64,000 nt of DNA from Streptomyces sp. NBC_01478 (lineage in GTDB: Bacteria > Actinomycetota > Actinomycetes > Streptomycetales > Streptomycetaceae), in the NCBI RefSeq assembly GCF_036227225.1, contig NZ_CP109444.1:10955501-11019500 (forward strand). Reading direction: 5' to 3'. Positions within the stretch are counted from its first letter, which is position 1. Each line of letters opens with the position of its first letter. The notes beneath the pieces are model-generated. The model ran no database searches, was not told the origin of the DNA, and was given only the letters and a program-made list of their open reading frames with translations. Made by a program: the position numbers and the translations under genes. Shown here in pieces: positions 47,885 through 57,296 of this stretch.

Positions 47885-48007
47885 CGAGGCACCCTATCCA
47901 CCATGTGGCACTGAGTGACCGAGTAGGTACAAAGCGCCTCCTGGGGCTCGCCCGGTCTGCTTGTGTCGTGGGAAAATGGTGTGATAACGGTGATTGGTGG
48001 CAGGGCC

Positions 48008-49237
48008 ATGACGGACGCGGAGATCGACTACGCGGCGGTGTTCCAGGGGCTGCCCGGCATGGTGGCCCTGCTGACGCCCGACCTGGTGTATGCGGACGCC
48101 AACGAGGAGTTCCTGCGCATGTCCGGCCGCACCCGTGAGCAGGTCGTCGGCCGCTTCCTCTTCGACGTCTTCCCCGACAACCCGAACGACCCGGCCGCCA
48201 CCGGCATGCGCAACCTGGAGACCTCGCTGCGCCGCGTCCTGTCCACGGGCGAACGCGACGCCATGGCCCTCCAGCGCTACGACGTCGAGTCGACGGCCTG
48301 CCCCGGGCAGTGGGACCAGCGCTACTGGAGCCCGGTCAACGCACCCTTGCTCGACCCGGACGGCAAGGTCGTCCTCCTCGTCCACCGGGTCGAGGAGGTC
48401 ACCGAACTGATCCGGGCCCGCGGCGGCCCCGGCAGCAGCCGCACCCGGGTACTGGAGGCCGAGCTGTACACCCGCGCCCGCGAACTCCAGGAGGTGAACG
48501 AACGGCTGCGCAGCGCCCACGCCCGCGAACGCGAGGTCGCCCTGGCCCTCCAGGAAGCGATGCTGCCCACCCGCCGGCAGAGCGCGGTCCACCAGATCGC
48601 CGTCCGCTACCGGCCCGCCGTCGGCTCCCTCAACGTCTGCGGCGACTGGTACGACGTGGTCGGCCTGGTCGGCGGCGACCGCATCGGCGTCTCCGTCGGG
48701 GACGTCGTCGGCCACGGCCTGGCCGCCGCCGGCGTCATGGGCCAACTGCGCAGCGCCCTGAGCGCCACCTCCCGGGTCGCGGACGGCCCCGCCCAGGCCC
48801 TGGACGTCCTGGGCCGCTACGCCCACGTCGTCGACGGCGCCGAATCCGCCACCGTGGTCACGACGTTCGTCGACTTCGACCGGCACACCATCACCTACAG
48901 CAGCGCCGGACACCCGCCGCCCGCCCTGGTCCACCCCGACGGCCGCGTGGAGTTCCTGGACCGGGCCACCGACCCACCGCTCGACGCCCGTCCCGACCCG
49001 ATGCCCAGGCCGCAGGCCACCACCGCGTTCTCCCCGGGCTCCACCCTGGTCCTCTACACCGACGGCCTGATCGAACGCCGCCGCGAGGACATCGACAAGG
49101 GCCTGGCCCGCCTCGCCGACTCCCTGGTCCGCCACCGGAACACCGACCCCGAGGCCCTCGCCGACGCCGTACTCCTCGAACTCCTCCCGCACGGGGGCGC
49201 CACCGACGACACGGCCCTGGTCATCGTGCGGCTCTGA
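48008..49237 (+). CDS. PAS + SpoIIE protein phosphatase
   Basis: 409 residues. PAS domain at the N-terminus (YAAVFQGLPGMVALLTPDLV, DANEEFLRMSGRTREQVVG), a coiled-coil linker with repeats of ER and REREVALALQEAML, and a PP2C-like SpoIIE domain (VCGDWYDVV, GVSVGDVVGHGLAAAG, VLYTDGLIERRR, DDTALVIVRL). ATG 48008 was chosen over the upstream ATG. It should dephosphorylate an anti-sigma antagonist in response to a signal sensed by the PAS domain. Confidence 0.88.
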   Translation: MTDAEIDYAAVFQGLPGMVALLTPDLVYADANEEFLRMSGRTREQVVGRFLFDVFPDNPNDPAATGMRNLETSLRRVLSTGERDAMALQRYDVESTACPGQWDQRYWSPVNAPLLDPDGKVVLLVHRVEEVTELIRARGGPGSSRTRVLEAELYTRARELQEVNERLRSAHAREREVALALQEAMLPTRRQSAVHQIAVRYRPAVGSLNVCGDWYDVVGLVGGDRIGVSVGDVVGHGLAAAGVMGQLRSALSATSRVADGPAQALDVLGRYAHVVDGAESATVVTTFVDFDRHTITYSSAGHPPPALVHPDGRVEFLDRATDPPLDARPDPMPRPQATTAFSPGSTLVLYTDGLIERRREDIDKGLARLADSLVRHRNTDPEALADAVLLELLPHGGATDDTALVIVRL

Positions 49238-49294: not shown

Positions 49295-52198
49295 TCACAC
49301 GACGATGCACGTCATCGCCGCCCACAGCAGCGGCGAGTGCTCGACACCGCCGTCCGCGCGCCAGCGGTCGAGCTGCTCGCGCTGCCAGGCGCCGAGGCTG
49401 TGCACGGGGTCGTCGTCCTCGTGAGCCGCGTCGACGGCGATGATCGCCTCCGACAACGGGCGTACGGAGTCCGGGAGTCGGGCCAGTTGGTGGAAGGCGA
49501 AACTGGTCGGCAGGACCCAGCGGGTCGCGGTGACCAGCTCGGCGCCGTTGTACAGCATCGCCGTCGCCAGGCCGAACGACTCGGCGAACCGCAGATCGCC
49601 GCCGCTCTCGCAGCCGATGAGGGCGACCCGGGGCGGCGCGGGCCAGATCCGGCCGCCCGGCTCACCGTCCGCGCGCAGCGGGAGCGAGCCCAGCAGGAGG
49701 TCCTTGGCGGACAGTGGCCGGTGCGTGCGCAGCGGCTCGGCCAGGCCGGTGGCCCCCGCGGCGCAGCACAGGTGCAGGGTGCCGTCCTCGCTCTGCCCGC
49801 CCTCGACCGGCGCGCCGCTCACATGGCCGACGTACATCAGCCTGCGGGCACCCTTGCGCAGTACACCGCTCAACCAGTCCCGGTCCAGGTCCGTACGGCG
49901 GAAGGCCTCCGCCGGCGTCGCGACGGACGGGACGACGGCGCCCGCGTCGAGGCGGCGCCGGACCAGGGACACCAGCTCCGGGTCGGAGCCCGGCGGCCCC
50001 AGGACCGAGCCGAGCGGAGAATCGGCGCGGAAGCCGGGGACACGGGGGTCGAGGACGAGAACGACCGGGTCCGTGTCGCTGCTCGGTGTCGTTGCGGGCG
50101 CCGGCTCCCGTGGCCGCAGCGACGCCGGCGCGGTGGTCACCACGTCCGCCAGGTCGATGAGCCGTACGTCGGTGCCGTCGTCGACGGAGAGGAGTTCCCA
50201 GGGCACCTGGGCGACGCGGGGCGACGGCTGGATCCGGATCAGCGGACGGCCCGCCCGCTCCGCCACCTGCCGTAGCTGCGCGGTCAGTTGCTCCGGCCAC
50301 AACGCCTCGGCCAGCACCCGTGCGAGCCGGCGCTCACTGTCGTACGAGGCCAGCGCGCCCGAGTCGAACGCCCGCCGCATGCCCTCCGCCCCGTCGCCCG
50401 CCGCCGGCAGCGCGTCGGCCAACACCTGTACCGCCGCGTCGACTTCGGCACCGGGACCGTGACCGGTGCCGAACCCCCGGGCGCCGCCCGCCCATGTCCA
50501 GGTCATGAGCAGGTCGCCGGCGTCGGCCAGTCGGACCTGGACGACGGGGCGGTTCGTCAGGTCGTCGGTGATCCAGAACGGCACCGCGTCCTCGTGCGCG
50601 ATCCGCCGGTGATAGCGGAACTCGGCCGCCGCGATGTACTCCTGGAGCGCGACGCGGCCCGGCCCGGACTGGGCCGACATCCGCACCTTCGGCGGCGGCG
50701 CGACCCGCAGCCCGACCGAGGCGGCGGCCTCCGCCGCGACACCGCCGAGCGCCATCGTGCCCTCGGCGCGGTCGTAGGCGTCCATGACCTTCATGGCCGC
50801 GTTCGGGAACACCGACGCGGGGTCCTCGACCGGCACGGAGGGTGGTGTGCGGTTCAGCGCCAACGAGGCGCCGGCGCACCGGTGTTCGGCCAGTTCGAAG
50901 AGCAGGCCCTGGTCCTGGCGGCGGATCGCGAGGCGGAACACCAACCGCATGGCCTCGTCGGCCAGTTCGAGCCACTGGCTGCGCGCGTGGGCGGTCGCGA
51001 AGTCGTAGCGTGCCGCCTCCAGGGCCAGTGCGGCGGGCAGGGCGAGGGAGAGCGCGTTGGCGATCGACTCCCGCTCGCGGTCGCCGTGGTCCGTCCGGTT
51101 CAGGTTGTCCTCGAGGGTGCGGGCGAGCATGAGGTCGACCTGCGCGCACCGCTCGTACACCTCCCGCTCCTGATACACGTCCCGGGCTGCCTGGGCCAGC
51201 CGCTTCATCTCGTCGATGTCGCCCCGCTCATAGGCGTGTTGGGCGCCCAGCAGCATGGTGTCGGCGGCGCCGATCGAGGCACCGAGCCGCTCGAACCGGG
51301 CCAGGCTCGCCGCCAGCAGCTCCTCCGCGCCGATGGTGTCGCCGCGCCGGCCGGCGAGAAAGGCACGCGCCTGCTCACAGACCGCGAGGTCCCCGAACCG
51401 CCGCTGTCCCTCGAAGAACGCGGACGCTTCGGCGAACAACCGCTCCGCCAGGTCGAGTTCGCCCCGGTGCAGCGCGGCGTACGCCCGGTGCGCGAGCAGT
51501 GTCCGCTGCTCACCGGTGTCTCCGGACTCCCGGAAGCGGTCCTCGGCGCGGGCGAAGAAGTCCTCGGCCGCCTCGAACCGCCCGGTCGAGGAGCAGATCA
51601 GACCCAGGGCGACCAACAGCCGGGGGACGGTCTCCACCGCCGTCTCCGGAGTGGTGGCCAGCAGCGCCGACGCCTGTTCCTCGGCGGCTCCCCACTCGCC
51701 CCGCTCCATCAGCAAGTGCACCCGGGTCAGGCCGAGTTCGGAGGTGCGCAGCCCGTCGGGGTCGTGGAACTCGGGCAGGCGGAGGGCCGCCTCGTCGAGC
51801 CGGGCCAGCGCCTCGTCCAGGCGCCCGGTCCGGCGCAGCAGGTCGGCGTCGGCGATCAGTGTCCGCAGCAGCATCTCCAGCCACAGTTGCCGGCCCTGCG
51901 GCCCCATCGGCTCCGACGCGATGCCGTCGAGCAGCGCGCGGGACCGCGTGTTGGCGTCCTCCGCCCCGGCCAGGTCGGTGGCGACGAGCCGGACACTCGC
52001 GATGTTCGCCAGCAGATGCGCGCGCAGGAACCGGACGTCCGGCGAGTCCTCGAAGGACTCGGCCAGGGCCAGCAACTCCTCGTAGACGGCGACCGCTGCG
52101 GTGAGATCGGCACCGAGCTGATACTCCTCGGCTTGGGCCAGACCGCTGTCGAAGGGCTCACCGTAGAGCTGCGCCACCCCACCGTTCTCGTTCGGCAT
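49295..52198 (-). CDS. TPR-CHAT (caspase-like) protein
   Basis: 967 residues, no signal peptide. Residues ~1-400 are helical TPR-type repeats (FEDSPDVRFLRAHLLANIAS, FRESGDTGEQRTLLAHRAYA, ELDLAERLFAEASAFFEGQ). Residues ~660-967 are a CHAT peptidase domain with the caspase-type dyad: His792 in MYVGHVSGA and Cys863 in ALIGCESGGDLRFAESFG. The middle (FRYHRRIAHEDAVPFWITDD) is beta-rich. CHAT proteases act in regulated-proteolysis and conflict systems. It is last in a three-gene minus operon, with 3 bp between it and the gene before; the two upstream partners are unassigned. Confidence 0.87.
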   Translation of the reverse strand: MPNENGGVAQLYGEPFDSGLAQAEEYQLGADLTAAVAVYEELLALAESFEDSPDVRFLRAHLLANIASVRLVATDLAGAEDANTRSRALLDGIASEPMGPQGRQLWLEMLLRTLIADADLLRRTGRLDEALARLDEAALRLPEFHDPDGLRTSELGLTRVHLLMERGEWGAAEEQASALLATTPETAVETVPRLLVALGLICSSTGRFEAAEDFFARAEDRFRESGDTGEQRTLLAHRAYAALHRGELDLAERLFAEASAFFEGQRRFGDLAVCEQARAFLAGRRGDTIGAEELLAASLARFERLGASIGAADTMLLGAQHAYERGDIDEMKRLAQAARDVYQEREVYERCAQVDLMLARTLEDNLNRTDHGDRERESIANALSLALPAALALEAARYDFATAHARSQWLELADEAMRLVFRLAIRRQDQGLLFELAEHRCAGASLALNRTPPSVPVEDPASVFPNAAMKVMDAYDRAEGTMALGGVAAEAAASVGLRVAPPPKVRMSAQSGPGRVALQEYIAAAEFRYHRRIAHEDAVPFWITDDLTNRPVVQVRLADAGDLLMTWTWAGGARGFGTGHGPGAEVDAAVQVLADALPAAGDGAEGMRRAFDSGALASYDSERRLARVLAEALWPEQLTAQLRQVAERAGRPLIRIQPSPRVAQVPWELLSVDDGTDVRLIDLADVVTTAPASLRPREPAPATTPSSDTDPVVLVLDPRVPGFRADSPLGSVLGPPGSDPELVSLVRRRLDAGAVVPSVATPAEAFRRTDLDRDWLSGVLRKGARRLMYVGHVSGAPVEGGQSEDGTLHLCCAAGATGLAEPLRTHRPLSAKDLLLGSLPLRADGEPGGRIWPAPPRVALIGCESGGDLRFAESFGLATAMLYNGAELVTATRWVLPTSFAFHQLARLPDSVRPLSEAIIAVDAAHEDDDPVHSLGAWQREQLDRWRADGGVEHSPLLWAAMTCIVV

Positions 52199-52201
52199 CG
52201 G

Positions 52202-53446
52202 TCAGTAGTCCTCATCGGTGGTGGCGGCGATCTCGGCGAGGAACGGCCCCGAAGTCCCCTCGTGCGGCGGCGAGTTGGGGACGTCGGCCGCCGCCGCTGC
52301 CGCGAGTCGTCGCCGGACCAGCGCGCGGATCGCGTCCCGGTCGGCGCCCCCATCAGGACCCGGCCCCGGATCGAAGCCGGGCAGCAGCACCCCGATCTCG
52401 ATCCGCGACCGTGTTTCCCCGGCGGCCGGCAGCTCCAGGTCCGCCCGGCCGCTCCACATGTCGTCCCGCCTGGCGAGCGGCACCCGGCTCGGGCGGCCGG
52501 CGTCGACCCCGACCTCCGCGACGAGCAGCGCACCGGCGACGGGCGCCGCGCTGTGGGCGACGACCTCGACCTCGATCCGCCGTCGCGCGCCGAGTGCGCG
52601 GGCGGTCCAGGACACCGCGGTCTCGGAGGCGTCGACGAAGCCGGGCGGATAGCGGCGCCAGTCGTTGGTCCCCGCGCCCCGCGCGATCACCCGGCCGCCG
52701 GAGACGAGCGGATCACCTGCGGCAAGGGCGTAGCCACCGTGCCGTGCGAACAACGCGACGGGATCGACCGCGATGCCGTCCCGACGGGGCCGGTTCAGGG
52801 CCTCCCGAAGGCCGCGCAGCGCCTGCCCGTCCCAACCGGCGCTGTCCGCCGCGTCGTCGACCGACCGCAGCACGCGCTCCAGCCGCCGTGCCGGTTCGGT
52901 CGACGGCGGTGTGGCCTGCCACCAGCGGATCAGCGGGTCGAGGGCAGCCTGGTGGTCCTCGATCAACTCGGCCACGCAGTCGTCGGGTTGATCGCCCTCG
53001 TCGTCGAAGAGCTGCTGGCACTCGTGCGTGAGCGAGGCCAACTCCAGCCCGAGCAGGTCCGGTTCGAGCGCGGCAATTCCGTCGAGGTGCGACGCCGGCC
53101 ACCACCGCGCCGCCCAGTGCCCGAAGCCGAGCCTCGCGGCGCTGTCCGCGAGTGCGGTCCTGTCCGGGGCAACCCGCACATCGGCCAACTCGCCCGCCGC
53201 ACAGGCGTGCACAGCAGCCGCGGTGCGCTCACCGTAGACCGCCCACAGCCACTGCTGCGCCCGCCCCACATCATGGATCTCCGCCGTGGGCGGACCGGGC
53301 GCCGCGAGGACCGGCCAGGCCAGCACCGCACCGGCGACGTCGAGAACCGCACGCGTGACGTCGGAGGAGGCGCCGGGACCGGTGGTGATCCGGATCGTGC
53401 CGTCGCCGTCGCGCGCGACATGGACATCGACAGCGGCCCACGCCAT
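52202..53446 (-). CDS. hypothetical protein, middle gene of the TPR-CHAT operon
   Basis: 414 residues, no membrane segment or signal. The N-terminus MAWAAVDVHVARDGDGTIRI leads into Trp-rich alpha/beta sequence (IHDVGRAQQWLWAVYGERTA, RLGFGHWAARWWPASHLDG), an acidic LTHECQQLFDDEGDQPDD segment and a C-terminal beta-sandwich-like region of about 130 residues (TARALGARRRIEVEVVAHSA, RSRIEIGVLLPGFDPG). ATG 53446 is 1 bp into the upstream TGA, with GAGGAG upstream, so it is coupled to the first gene. It may be a substrate or regulator of the CHAT protease, which starts 3 bp later. No recognised catalytic motif. Confidence 0.6.
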   Translation of the reverse strand: MAWAAVDVHVARDGDGTIRITTGPGASSDVTRAVLDVAGAVLAWPVLAAPGPPTAEIHDVGRAQQWLWAVYGERTAAAVHACAAGELADVRVAPDRTALADSAARLGFGHWAARWWPASHLDGIAALEPDLLGLELASLTHECQQLFDDEGDQPDDCVAELIEDHQAALDPLIRWWQATPPSTEPARRLERVLRSVDDAADSAGWDGQALRGLREALNRPRRDGIAVDPVALFARHGGYALAAGDPLVSGGRVIARGAGTNDWRRYPPGFVDASETAVSWTARALGARRRIEVEVVAHSAAPVAGALLVAEVGVDAGRPSRVPLARRDDMWSGRADLELPAAGETRSRIEIGVLLPGFDPGPGPDGGADRDAIRALVRRRLAAAAAADVPNSPPHEGTSGPFLAEIAATTDEDY

Positions 53447-54837
53447 CACGCGCTCCTCGACTCGGCAACTACGGCTTCGGCTACGGCGGTTGGTGCCGCC
53501 GATGCCGACAACGTCCGCAGTGCCGACCGGACCCTGGCCCGGTGGTCCATCATCACGGAGCGGGCGACCCCGTCGAGCAGGGCCCAGGCCGCCGCGGCAT
53601 CCGTGAGCGGCGCGTCGCGGACGTCCCGCCCGTGCAACCGCACCCACAGCCGCCGCATGTAGGCGGTCCAGGGAGTTCGGAGATCCTGGGCGAGGGCGTC
53701 CAGAACCCCGCCGTCCGGATCAGGGCGGGGCGAGACGGTCATCCGGCGGGCGCGCAGGACCGAAGCCTCTCTGCGCCAACGGCTGTTGACGGCTCGGTGC
53801 GCCGCGGTGCGCCCCGGCGCGGGTTCCTCGATGCCCAACGGGTCCAGGCCGACCGCGAGGCGGCCGCCTAGGACGACAGCGACGCGCAGGCTCTCGTCGT
53901 ACAGCCCGAGCGGAGCGCAACTGCGGCCGACCTCCCGCCCGACGAGCTCCGGCACCGTGGGCAGTTCCTCGCGGCGGGCCGACGACTGGAGCACGACGAA
54001 GAGCCGCTCGAATAGGGTGCGATCCAGCGGCGCGGGCAGGGTGGCCGTCGAGGCACCCCGGCCGACCTGGGGCCGTGGCGGCAACTCCCGTCCGGTCAGC
54101 CCGAGATGAGCCGGCAGCCCCTCCCGCCCCCAGACCCCGCGCGCGTGCGCCCACAGGGCCCGGCCGAGCAGCTCGCCGTGTCCGGCCTCGACCATCGACC
54201 GGTACGACGGTGAGTTCCTCGGCCCCTCCGCCCCGCCGCAGGCCTCCAGGACCTCGCCCGCCAACGCGACCGCAGCAGCCGTATCGACGACCGGAACCGA
54301 CCGACGCCCCTCCCACCCGGCGACCAACTCCCGTTCCAACCGGGCCTGTTGGGTGACGTCTGTCAGATATCGCTTCAGCGCGTCGACCGTACGGCCGCCG
54401 TCCGCGTCCGCGACGTCCTCGACGACGGACCTGGCCAACGCGCCCGCACCGGCGGCGGGTTCACCGTGCTCGGCGGCCAACTCGAAGCACCGCTGGAAGT
54501 ACAGATCCTGAGGATTGCCCGCCACCACGCCCAGCGCCCGGCGGGTCCGCTTGAGCAGCGTGAACCACTGTGCCGTCGCGGCCAGTCGCGCACCGCACTC
54601 CCGTATCAGCGCGTCGAGACGCGCGGCCGGCTCCGGGGCGAGGAAGTCCATCGCGAGGTCGGGACACAGGCCCGGCCGGACGATCAACGGCAGCACGATC
54701 AGCTTGACCGTCCGGGTCAGCGGGGCACCACCGGGGCCGCTCAGCGATTCCAGCCCCGGCCCCAGCGCACGCCACGCACCGTCGATCACCATGGCGCGCG
54801 GTCGGCGCTCGCCGGTCAACTGGGTGGGAAGCGGCAT
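53446..54837 (-). CDS. hypothetical protein, first gene of the TPR-CHAT operon
   Basis: 463 residues. No TM, no obvious catalytic motif. It contains long Leu/Ala/Arg-rich helices (ARLDALIRECGARLAATAQW, FTLLKRTRRALGVVAGNPQ, LYFQRCFELAAEHGEPAAG), a Gly/Pro hinge and a final helical segment (TAYMRRLWVRLHGRDVRDAP). ATG 54837 lacks a clear ribosome site; ATG 54792 is an alternative. The order and coupling resemble CHAT/TPR-associated conflict systems in which an unnamed helical protein precedes a caspase-like effector; that comparison is by architecture only. Confidence 0.55.
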   Translation of the reverse strand: MPLPTQLTGERRPRAMVIDGAWRALGPGLESLSGPGGAPLTRTVKLIVLPLIVRPGLCPDLAMDFLAPEPAARLDALIRECGARLAATAQWFTLLKRTRRALGVVAGNPQDLYFQRCFELAAEHGEPAAGAGALARSVVEDVADADGGRTVDALKRYLTDVTQQARLERELVAGWEGRRSVPVVDTAAAVALAGEVLEACGGAEGPRNSPSYRSMVEAGHGELLGRALWAHARGVWGREGLPAHLGLTGRELPPRPQVGRGASTATLPAPLDRTLFERLFVVLQSSARREELPTVPELVGREVGRSCAPLGLYDESLRVAVVLGGRLAVGLDPLGIEEPAPGRTAAHRAVNSRWRREASVLRARRMTVSPRPDPDGGVLDALAQDLRTPWTAYMRRLWVRLHGRDVRDAPLTDAAAAWALLDGVARSVMMDHRARVRSALRTLSASAAPTAVAEAVVAESRSA

Positions 54838-54963
54838 GTCAGGAGGGTACGTCGTCCGAGATCGGGCGGGCGAACCTGGGATCGGTAGGCGACCGGAGCC
54901 CCCTAGCGTCCACAGGGACAGCGGGAACCACGGGCATCCACCCGACCAGAAGGAGCAACCGAC

Positions 54964-55386
54964 ATGGGAATCTTCGGGCGCCGCAAGAGCCGCGAGGAGA
55001 AGGCCGCCGAGATCGCCGGCCAGGTGGCGAGCGGCAAGGGTTTCTACGGCCGGGCGACCCGCGCCTTCCTCGGCAACGAGGACTACGCCAGGGTCCAGCA
55101 GTCGATGGGGGCGTACAACTCGGGCCTCGGAGCACAGCAGTTGCTCGCGGCGGGAGCGCCGACGACGACCGCCGTCGTCGTGTCGATCGCCGACACCGGC
55201 CAACTGGTCAACCACGACCCGGTCGTGGACCTGGTCGTCCAGCCCACCGGGAGCACCGAGCAGATCCCCCTCCGGACCATCGTCTCCAAGCTGCGGATAC
55301 CCCGCACCGGCGACCAGGTCCTGCTGGTGGCCGACCCGGCTCACCCCGGCGGCTACCTCTACGCGGGCGGCGGCGTGACCCCGTGA
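54964..55386 (+). CDS. hypothetical protein with a conserved beta-rich tail
   Basis: 140 residues. A basic/charged N-terminus (MGIFGRRKSREEKAAEIAGQ) and a helical hairpin-like segment (FYGRATRAFLGNEDYARVQQ) are followed by a ~65-residue beta domain (TTAVVVSIADTGQLVNHDPV, then RTGDQVLLVADPAHPGGYL). ATG 54964 has AAGGAG upstream. The beta domain resembles segments in the two downstream genes. Function unknown. Confidence 0.6.
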   Translation: MGIFGRRKSREEKAAEIAGQVASGKGFYGRATRAFLGNEDYARVQQSMGAYNSGLGAQQLLAAGAPTTTAVVVSIADTGQLVNHDPVVDLVVQPTGSTEQIPLRTIVSKLRIPRTGDQVLLVADPAHPGGYLYAGGGVTP

Positions 55387-55416: not shown

Positions 55417-55890
55417 ATGACCGACGACGGATTTCGACCCGATCCGGTGCGGATGACGCTGGTCGATCACGTCGGCCCGTGGGACGCCGTGTTCCTGTAC
55501 GTCATCGCCGCGACGGTGTGCCTGTGCGGCCCGGTCATGCTGGGGCCCGCCCTCTTTGCGGGTGTGGACCTCATGGTCGTCGGCATCGTGTTCACGGTGG
55601 TCTTCGTTCCCGTGGGCCTGGGACTGGGGGCCAACACGGTCGGCGAAAGAGAGCAGAACCGGCGGCTCGACGCCGTCGGGGTTCCGGCGACCGCCGAGAT
55701 CACCGAGCTGACCGACTTCGACTGGAACGGTGAGGAATCCGGCGTCGAGGTCGTCCTGCGCGTCAGCGGGCCGGGGCTGCGGACGTTCGAGGCGACCTGG
55801 AGACGCGGGCACCATCCCGGCCTTCGGGTGGGCCGCGGGCTCGCGGCCGAGGTGGACCCGGCCGCCGGTCGGTTCCGTGTCCGGCTATGA
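55417..55890 (+). CDS. small membrane protein with a beta-domain tail
   Basis: 157 residues. Two TM helices (~25-45 and ~52-72; AVFLYVIAATVCLCGPVM and MVVGIVFTVVFVPVGLGLG) and a cytosolic C-terminal domain (TAEITELTDFDWNGEESGVE, RVGRGLAAEVDPAAGRF) like the beta module of its neighbours. It starts 30 bp after the previous gene and is probably cotranscribed. Function unknown. Confidence 0.65.
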   Translation: MTDDGFRPDPVRMTLVDHVGPWDAVFLYVIAATVCLCGPVMLGPALFAGVDLMVVGIVFTVVFVPVGLGLGANTVGEREQNRRLDAVGVPATAEITELTDFDWNGEESGVEVVLRVSGPGLRTFEATWRRGHHPGLRVGRGLAAEVDPAAGRFRVRL

Positions 55891-55913: not shown

Positions 55914-57296
55914 ATGCGCAGTCACACCGGTGTGTTCATCGGCCATCTGTTGTTCGCCGCGGTCTGCCTCTCGGGGGCCCCGGTCTTCCTCCTCGTCGGG
56001 TACTTCGCCTGGCCCGACGATCCCGGCTGGGGCTGGCCGGCGTTCGTGTTCGCCTTCGGACTGGTCGGTACGGTCATGATCCCCGTCGTGGCGATCACCG
56101 CCACGAGGCAGGCCTATCCCCGGATCACGCGCAGGGACCGTGTGAAGAAGGCGAGCCATCCGTACCGGGACGACACCTTCGTGATGTGGGCGCCGAAGTC
56201 CCAACAGAGCCACCCGCAGGCCCAGTTGGTCCGCGCGGACGTACTGGAGGCGTCACTCGTCCACTACAGCCCCGACGGCGAGTCGACCTTCACCACCCAC
56301 GGGGGCAACTACACGCCCGACGAGTTCACACCGCTGATCAAGCTGAGGATGCGAGTGCACGACGGCGAGGGGATCGAGGGGTTCGAGGTGACGGGCGAGT
56401 ACCGGGTACCGTCCCTGTGCCTCTCGGCGATCACGGCGGGCCGCCTGGCCGTACTCGTGGGCCCGGTACGTCCCGGGGTGCGGCGAAGCTTCACCCCGCA
56501 GTGGCCGAGCAGCGCACTGCTCGCCGGTACCAGAACGTGCCGGGTGATCGACCTCGAAGGCCGAACGAGCGACGTGACCAGGCGAGTTGACCGTCAGTTC
56601 CAGCAGATGCGGATCTCACGCGAGGTCGGAGGCATCGCCCTGACCGGCGACACGATCGACCTCCGGCGCCTGGACCCGCACACGGCGGCACGCTACGCCG
56701 CCCTGGCCGACCGCCCCGAGGACCAGGCACCGGTAAGCGAACCCGGCGAGGAGGCTCGCCGACTCGCGGACCAACTCCCCGGCGAACAGGGGGCGTTCGG
56801 CTTGGTCGGCCGACGATGGTCGCGTCGCGGCGGAGTGCTGGTGCGCGGCCGCTTCCTGGAGATGCGCGCCCGGACCACCTTCCAGGACCACGGCCCCGTC
56901 CTCGACACGGTCCTGCGCATCCAACCGGCCGACGGCACACCCCCGTTCGACGCCGCCCGCCGACTGACGGTCCCGATGGACTACCTGACGGCCCTCCACC
57001 GCACCAAGGAGGTCGTCCTCGTCGTCAACCCGAACGGCATCTCCTACGACGTCGACTGGGCCCGAAGCAGTCTCCTCGCGGGCGTCGCCGCGGCCACGGT
57101 CGTCGCCCCGGACGGGCGGGAACTCCCGGTGACGGGGCGCCCCGACATCATCTGGGCCCTGATGAACCTCCTCGCCTCGCACGGCATCTCGGTCACGACA
57201 CCTGTCCTGGACCTCCGCAAGCGCCGGATGAACACCGTGGCGGGCGCGGTGCTGCACGTGGTGCGCGGCCACACCGAACCCCGCACCTGTGCATGA
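55914..57296 (+). CDS. membrane protein with repeated beta-rich modules
   Basis: 460 residues. Two TM segments at the N-terminus (~10-30 and ~43-62), then two related soluble beta domains at ~90-190 (RADVLEASLVHYSPDGEST, FTPLIKLRMRVHDGEGIEGF) and ~315-400 (RGRFLEMRARTTFQDHGPV, TVLRIQPADGTPPFDAARRL) with a charged segment between. RBS GAAGGGAGCC before ATG 55914. The last base pairs overlap the next start. It probably belongs to the same transcript as the two preceding genes; function unknown. Confidence 0.65.
   Translation: MRSHTGVFIGHLLFAAVCLSGAPVFLLVGYFAWPDDPGWGWPAFVFAFGLVGTVMIPVVAITATRQAYPRITRRDRVKKASHPYRDDTFVMWAPKSQQSHPQAQLVRADVLEASLVHYSPDGESTFTTHGGNYTPDEFTPLIKLRMRVHDGEGIEGFEVTGEYRVPSLCLSAITAGRLAVLVGPVRPGVRRSFTPQWPSSALLAGTRTCRVIDLEGRTSDVTRRVDRQFQQMRISREVGGIALTGDTIDLRRLDPHTAARYAALADRPEDQAPVSEPGEEARRLADQLPGEQGAFGLVGRRWSRRGGVLVRGRFLEMRARTTFQDHGPVLDTVLRIQPADGTPPFDAARRLTVPMDYLTALHRTKEVVLVVNPNGISYDVDWARSSLLAGVAAATVVAPDGRELPVTGRPDIIWALMNLLASHGISVTTPVLDLRKRRMNTVAGAVLHVVRGHTEPRTCA

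What the first reader, a model, noticed from the sequence alone, without database searches (positions are those of the whole stretch)
49295..54837. Three-gene TPR-CHAT caspase-like operon with two unassigned partners
Translationally coupled genes (TGATG overlap, 3-bp gap) encode two orphan proteins followed by a 967-residue TPR-CHAT with an intact His/Cys dyad. Domain logic resembles bacterial CHAT/TPR (CATRA-type) conflict modules in which a caspase-like effector is triggered by a sensor. The first two proteins could be sensor and substrate/inhibitor. This is the best candidate for an undescribed system in the window.
Basis: partly seen in the sequence, partly recalled or inferred. Interest (0 to 1): 0.72.

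Follow-up and report, generated by a model that had tools for sequence, protein, structure and literature searches.

The report
Caspase-like protease switch with own promoter
A set of neighbouring genes built around a caspase-like protease is inherited together across many actinobacteria and carries its own DNA control signal, which in related bacteria also sits in front of genes for small exported proteins, so it looks like an undescribed gene-control system rather than a lone killer protein.

Summary
The three-gene operon is real: G1 (463 aa), G2 (414 aa) and a TPR-CHAT protein (967 aa, His792/Cys863). G1 and G2 match no Pfam, NCBIfam or PADLOC family. The set keeps its order in Streptomyces, Kitasatospora, Kutzneria, Streptomonospora, Nocardia and Rhodococcus, is rearranged but complete in the mycobacterial loci read, and appears to move as a unit. 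The element takes the -35 place of a promoter with a -10 hexamer at fixed spacing, and is copied in front of parts that moved. Of 148 genomes of one (mycobacterial) genus, all 102 with G1 hold its 13-bp core, 12 of 46 without; extra copies follow gain and loss of G1 on a tree and sit before exported-protein genes. Best reading: a cassette-encoded regulator (candidate G1), gated by TPR-CHAT with G2, switches a small envelope regulon, much as CRISPR Csx29 frees CASP-sigma. Anatomy is shown; DNA binding, proteolysis and signal are inferred. Defence is neither shown nor excluded.

The parts
53446..54837 (-). G1, 463 aa, basic (pI 9.7), predicted all-helical; candidate DNA-binding regulator
   Evidence: Translation; no Pfam/PADLOC/NCBIfam hit; AlphaFold2 pLDDT 81.4, 19 helices, no PDB fold match; pI.
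52202..53446 (-). G2, 414 aa, acidic (net -20); predicted alpha/beta N-terminal part, helical middle, Ig/CBM-like beta-sandwich at about 252-360, conserved acidic C-terminal tail; candidate inhibitor or protease substrate
49295..52198 (-). TPR-CHAT protein, 967 aa (TPR about 158-263, CHAT 624-964)
   Evidence: PF12770 38.5 bits, PF13424 36.1 bits.
49823..49825 (-). codon of His792 (YVGH), CHAT dyad
   Evidence: Invariant in 77 of 77 and 20 of 20 more.
49610..49612 (-). codon of Cys863 (GCESGG), CHAT dyad
   Evidence: Invariant in 77 of 77 and 20 of 20 more.
54871..54888 (-). dedicated element CTACCGATCCCAGGTTCG; read on the + strand (CGAACCTGGGATCGGTAG) it takes the -35 place of the divergent U1 promoter
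   Evidence: only match at <=2 mismatches in the 12.1-Mb genome.
54904..54909 (+). TAGCGT, -10-like hexamer of the divergent promoter, 15 bp after the element
   Evidence: Same place and TANNNT form in 42 Streptomyces-type and 31 Nocardia-type sites.
54964..55386 (+). U1, 140 aa, divergent fourth gene
   Evidence: tblastn in 43 of 43 Streptomyces-type loci besides the window (in L028 it lies past CHAT, not divergent); alignment.
55417..55890 (+). U2, 157 aa, two hydrophobic segments; less constant member of the divergent operon
   Evidence: 16 other loci; hydrophobicity.
55914..57296 (+). U3, 460 aa, two hydrophobic segments; less constant member of the divergent operon
   Evidence: 14 other loci; hydrophobicity.

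Best explanation
The locus is one self-contained module: divergent envelope-type gene(s), G1, G2, TPR and CHAT (the last two fused in the window) plus a dedicated promoter element. Proposed mechanism: a cassette-encoded DNA-binding factor, most likely the basic helical protein G1, binds the element in place of a -35 box and drives (or blocks) transcription of the divergent genes and its own operon, and in mycobacteria of scattered genes for exported proteins. The acidic G2 is the likely inhibitor or gate, and the TPR-CHAT protease releases the factor by cleaving a partner when its TPR part receives a signal. SHOWN by sequence: the unit, its co-inheritance, the dyad, the element, its -10 spacing, its copies at moved genes, its association with G1 presence, the exported nature of the extra targets. 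INFERRED: that G1 binds the element, that G2 inhibits or is cleaved, that CHAT is active, and what the signal is. The direction of control (activation preferred) is inferred from the element's -35 place.
For: Unit: G2 in 80 and G3 in 78 of 82 G1 loci (L030, L045 and L079 end at contig ends, L054 has a cut G1 and neither partner); G1, G2, TPR and CHAT in 21 of 21 loci. Flanks differ: 80 left flanks fall into 49 groups, 72 right into 38. Four Streptomyces loci carry Nocardia-type G1, G2 and CHAT together. Element: <=3 mismatches within 150 bp of G1 in 70 of 81 loci. A second copy lies 5' of a DUF3592 membrane gene wherever that gene sits 3' of CHAT, in 10 of 11 loci. All 12 mycobacterial-type loci have two copies, one 5' of G1-G2 and one 5' of the PF05481 lipoprotein-TPR-CHAT operon. 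Promoter form. Trans action: of 148 genomes in genus g8, 102 of 102 with G1 and 12 of 46 without hold the 13-bp core; >=2 extra sites in 76 of 102 against 3 of 46; 17 independent pairs on an rpoB tree of 115 genomes, 10.2 with and 0.5 against, median p 0.0039. Targets: 42 of 55 genes called on the promoter side are exported or membrane proteins against 44 of 194 background ORFs; on the other side 9 of 37. Charge: G1 median pI 9.3, G2 4.6. Precedent: passages of PMC10028731 report that TPR-CHAT Csx29 cleaves Csx30, an inhibitor of the sigma factor CASP-sigma.
Against: No experiment. G1 matches no known DNA-binding family or fold; which component binds is a guess from charge and universality. 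A first tree test on 57 genomes, with all 12 G1-negative genomes bearing sites put in on purpose (10 placed; one lacked an rpoB locus and one, G952, likewise), was inconclusive (3.7 against 1.0 pairs, median p 0.375); I then enlarged the sample. Extra sites were estimated as total minus 2. Twelve G1-negative genomes hold the core, one (G973) six times. The 60 targets include orthologues, so its p value is overstated, and the exported call is a crude hydrophobicity rule. The element was not tested by footprint and could be bound by a co-inherited factor encoded elsewhere. In L104-L106 element and divergent gene are degenerate or different.
Confidence: 0.5

Rival explanations
1. Conflict or defence module: TPR-CHAT is a protease effector, G1/G2 sensor and substrate or inhibitor, and the element only autoregulates the module.
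For: CHAT with intact dyad; patchy distribution (18 of 394 genomes of the family), transfer as a unit, varied flanks; TPR-CHAT proteins act in type III-E CRISPR immunity (passages of PMC10028731).
Against: No PADLOC hit for the three proteins; PADLOC scan of 130 flanking ORFs gave at most 4 members per family, led by kinase-type models, with no control set and 25 of 67 families shown; the extra mycobacterial targets are exported-protein genes, which a mere autoregulator does not explain.
Confidence: 0.25
2. The element belongs to a host regulator encoded elsewhere (an activator or sigma factor) whose gene is co-inherited with the cassette; the cassette is a target, not the controller.
For: Promoter-like arrangement with a fixed -10; 12 of 46 G1-negative genomes still hold core sites, G973 six.
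Against: In the window genome the 18-mer at <=2 mismatches occurs once; with the 13-mer, G293 and G755 have one site, at the cassette (G294 none); extra sites follow G1 through independent gains and losses.
Confidence: 0.2
3. An ordinary accessory envelope operon in which CHAT and TPR have a maintenance role and element conservation reflects one strong promoter copied with the genes.
For: Lipoprotein, DUF3592 and membrane partners; in Nocardia the flanks are more stable (19 right flanks in one group).
Against: Invariance of 13-18 bp across families and placement in front of unrelated exported genes far from the cassette.
Confidence: 0.05

Closest known systems
Type III-E CRISPR CASP system (Cas7-11, TPR-CHAT Csx29, Csx30, CASP-sigma)
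   Same: TPR-CHAT protease encoded with non-protease partners and a dedicated promoter motif; passages of PMC10028731 report cleavage of a sigma-factor inhibitor and motif matches in promoters of its own locus.
   Different: No Cas gene among the conserved members; G1 and G2 show no sigma-factor or other Pfam hit; TPR and CHAT are separate genes in most lineages (47 split, 28 fused).
MoxR-vWA ternary conflict systems (VMAP, iSTAND, TERNS3) and the caspase-dependent CATRA systems
   Same: Peptidase-centred gene sets with fixed order, favoured by filamentous bacteria (passages of PMC7159879 and PMC8195603).
   Different: No MoxR or vWA gene among the conserved members; the partners here are unrelated by Pfam scan.
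DegS-RseA-RpoE and other regulated-proteolysis envelope responses
   Same: Proposed logic: a protease frees a transcription factor that controls envelope genes (DegS-RseA is described in the passages of PMC10028731).
   Different: Caspase-like cytosolic protease, new partners, own promoter element; no trans-envelope protease identified.

Membership tests
TPR-CHAT proteins | CHAT domain with His/Cys dyad plus TPR repeats | tested here: met
   PF12770 38.5 bits and PF13424 36.1 bits above cut-off; dyad invariant.
Type III-E CASP | ECF sigma factor partner (CASP-sigma) | tested here: not met
   No Pfam hit at E<=1 for G1 or G2; U1 and X6 show none or subthreshold DUF3592.
Type III-E CASP | Cas7-11/gRAMP effector in the locus | not tested
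   No Cas family was searched for by name; the genes conserved across loci include none by Pfam.
Type III-E CASP | TPR-CHAT cleaves a partner that restrains a transcription factor | not testable with these tools
   Needs biochemistry.
CATRA ternary systems | CATRA-N/CATRA-C domains | tested here: inconclusive
   No Pfam family at E<=1 in G1 or G2; presence of CATRA models in that library was not verified.
MoxR-vWA ternary systems | MoxR ATPase and vWA protein as core genes | tested here: not met
   None of the conserved members has such a hit; flanks of each locus were not scanned for them.
Known PADLOC defence systems | Match to a PADLOC-DB 2.0.0 model | tested here: not met
   0 families at E<=1 for all three proteins.
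DUF3592 (PF12158) for the divergent partners | Score above Pfam cut-off 25.3 | tested here: inconclusive
   L020 29.6 and L029 28.5 bits above; X6 of L060 15.4 and of L053 16.3 below; window U1 and U2 none. Profile comparison of U1 with X6: probability 12%, E 0.0023.

The most novel reading that the evidence does not exclude
A new CRISPR-free class of protease-gated transcription switch: a mobile module whose own, previously unknown DNA-binding protein (G1) recognises TGGGATCGGTAG in place of the -35 box, is held by G2, is released by a caspase-like TPR-CHAT protease, and has recruited genome-wide regulons of small secreted proteins and lipoproteins in mycobacteria.
Probability: 0.4. Interest if true: 0.88.

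Novelty: new variant of a known kind. Interest (0 to 1): 0.76.

Why it matters
It would show that caspase-like TPR-CHAT proteases control transcription outside CRISPR, link a mobile module to the protein make-up of the actinobacterial envelope, and give two orphan families (G1: 627 hits to the window protein, and 1195 to a mycobacterial-type one; G2: 325 hits) a testable function. The element makes it directly testable: one short promoter, one reporter, a handful of gene removals. It also gives a search key: an exact 18-mer scan of 199 genomes of the window's genus found 11 genomes, and G1 lay beside 10 of the 11 sites fetched.

Tried and rejected
CATRA, sigma-factor or known-defence identity of G1/G2: no Pfam, NCBIfam or PADLOC hit and no PDB sequence relative with alignment profiles. 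Fold search of G1 found nothing usable; for G2 only a common beta-sandwich at 252-360 was matched; other parts were barely tested, so no claim of new folds is made.

PP2C-like, kinase-like and phospholipase-like neighbours (47-46 kb side) as members: found only in 6-7 close relatives, rejected. An att-site reading of the element: genomes of the genus without the cassette hold no exact copy (188 of 199 without match) and copies sit at promoters, so rejected. Defence-island test: PADLOC on 130 flanking ORFs, uncontrolled, inconclusive. A first U1 profile drew in antisense G1 stretches and was discarded. Alignment A1 held a wrong-strand row and was replaced by A2.

Full report
1. Observation. CHAT and TPR score above Pfam cut-offs; G1 and G2 match no Pfam, PADLOC or NCBIfam model at E<=1. 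The window lies at 10.96-11.02 Mb of a 12.12-Mb one-contig genome whose nearest named relatives of G1 are Streptomyces.

2. Conservation. G1 was found in 3 of 36 other genomes of the genus in one draw, 18 of 394 of the family (own genome included) and 36 of 393 of the class, in 6 of 122 genera. A scan of named genomes gave 163 relatives, 80 kept: Streptomyces, Kitasatospora, Actinacidiphila, Kutzneria, Streptomonospora, Nocardia, Rhodococcus, Antrihabitans and a few unclassified. Of 82 G1 loci (80, the window, L006), 80 hold G2 and 78 hold G3; three of the four misses in G3 are contig ends, L054 is a true exception with a cut G1. TPR and CHAT are one ORF in 28 and two ORFs in 47 of the 75 loci classed; the fused state changes 5 times on a G1 tree, which cannot tell gain from loss. 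L053 and L107 are the same locus; one search mislabelled L107 as split and one search left it out.

3. Mobility. Left flanks (80) fall into 49 groups and right flanks (72) into 38, so the cassette sits in many contexts; in Nocardia it is more stable (one group of 19 right flanks). Four Streptomyces loci (L090, L109-L111) have G1, G2 and CHAT that all score higher against Nocardia-type than against Streptomyces-type relatives, as expected if the cassette moved whole.

4. The divergent gene. U1 (54964-55386) is found in 43 of 43 other Streptomyces-type loci, divergent in all but L028. In Mycobacteriales and a few others the place is taken by X6, a membrane protein with two DUF3592-like repeats below the Pfam cut-off; Kutzneria L052 has both. 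A PF05481 (19-kDa antigen family) lipoprotein is present in 45 of 48 Mycobacteriales-type loci (Pfam confirmed in five); the three without it (L076, L077, L080) also lack X6 and the element within the flank held. A DUF3592 membrane protein is found in 28 of 43 Streptomyces-type loci: in the U1 operon in 17, beyond CHAT in 11.

5. The element. The U1-G1 intergenic region of 25 aligned loci shares CTACCGATCCCAGGTT. At <=3 mismatches a site lies within 150 bp of G1 in 70 of 81 loci. Of the 11 others, L058, L065, L073 and L074 keep a site by the lipoprotein after an insertion, L050, L063 and L075 have one just outside my limits, and L076, L077, L080 and L086 have none near G1. In the window genome it is unique at <=2 mismatches. 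Among 199 genomes of the genus, 11 have exact matches, 12 sites; of the 11 sites fetched, 10 adjoin G1 and one (L115) does not.

6. Copies follow moved parts. Where the DUF3592 gene lies beyond CHAT, a second copy stands in front of it in 10 of 11 loci, 28 bp from the start codon in seven by ORF call and in L040 by the start; L028 has none in the sequence held. In the 12 mycobacterial-type loci, whose order is lipoprotein-TPR-CHAT, X6 reversed, G1-G2, there are two copies each: 5' of G1 (CTACCGAACCCAA) and 5' of the lipoprotein (CTACCGATCCCAA).

7. Promoter form. Read towards the divergent genes, TGGGATCGGTAG is followed by a -10 hexamer: TA-C-T at +16 to +21 in 31 Nocardia-type sites and TAgCGT in 42 Streptomyces-type sites; in 60 mycobacterial extra sites TgtAcT one base earlier; the 24 mycobacterial cassette sites mix two kinds and show mainly the last CT. 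The element therefore occupies the -35 region.

8. Action in trans. In 12 genomes the 13-mer CTACCGAWCCCAR occurs 0-9 times and its reversed control never; G590, G503 and G777 have only the two cassette copies. In 148 genomes of g8 the core occurs in 114 (reversed control 9 hits in all) and G1 in 102. All 102 have the core (mean 5.4 sites); 12 of 46 without G1 do (mean 0.41; nine with one site, two with two, G973 with six). At least two sites beyond the cassette pair: 76 of 102 against 3 of 46.

9. Control for kinship. rpoB loci of 57 genomes, chosen to hold as many G1-negative site bearers as could be placed, gave 10 independent pairs, 3.7 for and 1.0 against, median p 0.375. I then added 58 placed genomes; with 115, G1 changes 19 times and 17 pairs give 10.2 for, 0.5 against, median p 0.0039, range 0.0002-0.07, for >=2 extra sites; 9.1 to 0 (median p 0.0039) for >=3; 10.0 to 0.9 (median p 0.012) for >=1. 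The enlargement after a first look should be weighed.

10. Targets. I fetched 60 of the non-cassette sites in the cut listing, chosen without regard to genes. The promoter-side gene is exported or membrane-bound by a hydrophobicity rule in 42 of 55 called, the other side in 9 of 37, background ORFs of L092-L102 in 44 of 194. Recurrent targets are small secreted proteins with WCPG and W-D-x-x-x-CH-x-Y motifs, lipoproteins and small membrane proteins. Six of the 60 are from G973, which lacks G1.

11. Mechanism. Co-inheritance of element sites with the cassette argues that a cassette product reads it. Of the constant proteins, G1 is basic (median pI 9.3) and G2 strongly acidic (median 4.6); TPR-CHAT is acidic. 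By analogy with Csx29-Csx30-CASP-sigma (passages of PMC10028731) I propose protease-gated release of G1. This is inference.

12. Literature. Searches for TPR-CHAT, CHAT domain with Streptomyces or Nocardia, CATRA, CHAT protease with gasdermin, and the element's letters listed no description of this gene set or element; only an open-licence library was searched. Papers seen: passages of PMC7159879, PMC8195603 and PMC10028731; the rest as listings.

Noticed in passing
L082:13891-16602: In Rhodococcus opacus two ORFs that read like AhpC and AhpF (label from recall, no family search) are inserted between the TPR and CHAT genes.
   Followed up: no
genome G973, loci L313-L318: Genome without a detected G1 but with six core sites, several before the same exported and membrane families; a recent loss of the cassette or a trans factor elsewhere.
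   Followed up: partly
L115 (G852:C43): Exact element without G1 beside it, next to ORF pieces that may be transposase (recall); possibly a cassette remnant.
   Followed up: partly
L054:10001-10930: Streptomyces lasiicapitis G1 ends at about residue 292 and no G2 or G3 follows in 10 kb: a decayed cassette that still has element and U1.
   Followed up: no
L084 and L085: Two scaffolds of Nocardia albiluteola carry cassettes with identical G1 proteins.
   Followed up: no
L293, L300, L302, L304: Some mycobacterial sites front genes whose N-termini look like PE-family proteins (recall; no family search).
   Followed up: no
window 47963-49237: Plus-strand gene 3' of the operon that reads like a PAS/PP2C (SpoIIE-type) phosphatase (recall); conserved only in seven close relatives.
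   Followed up: partly
G2 C-terminus, window about 52202-52240: Conserved tail of the form P-L/F-L-AEIAA...D-x-D-F/Y at the very C-terminus of G2 across lineages; a possible docking or cleavage motif.
   Followed up: no
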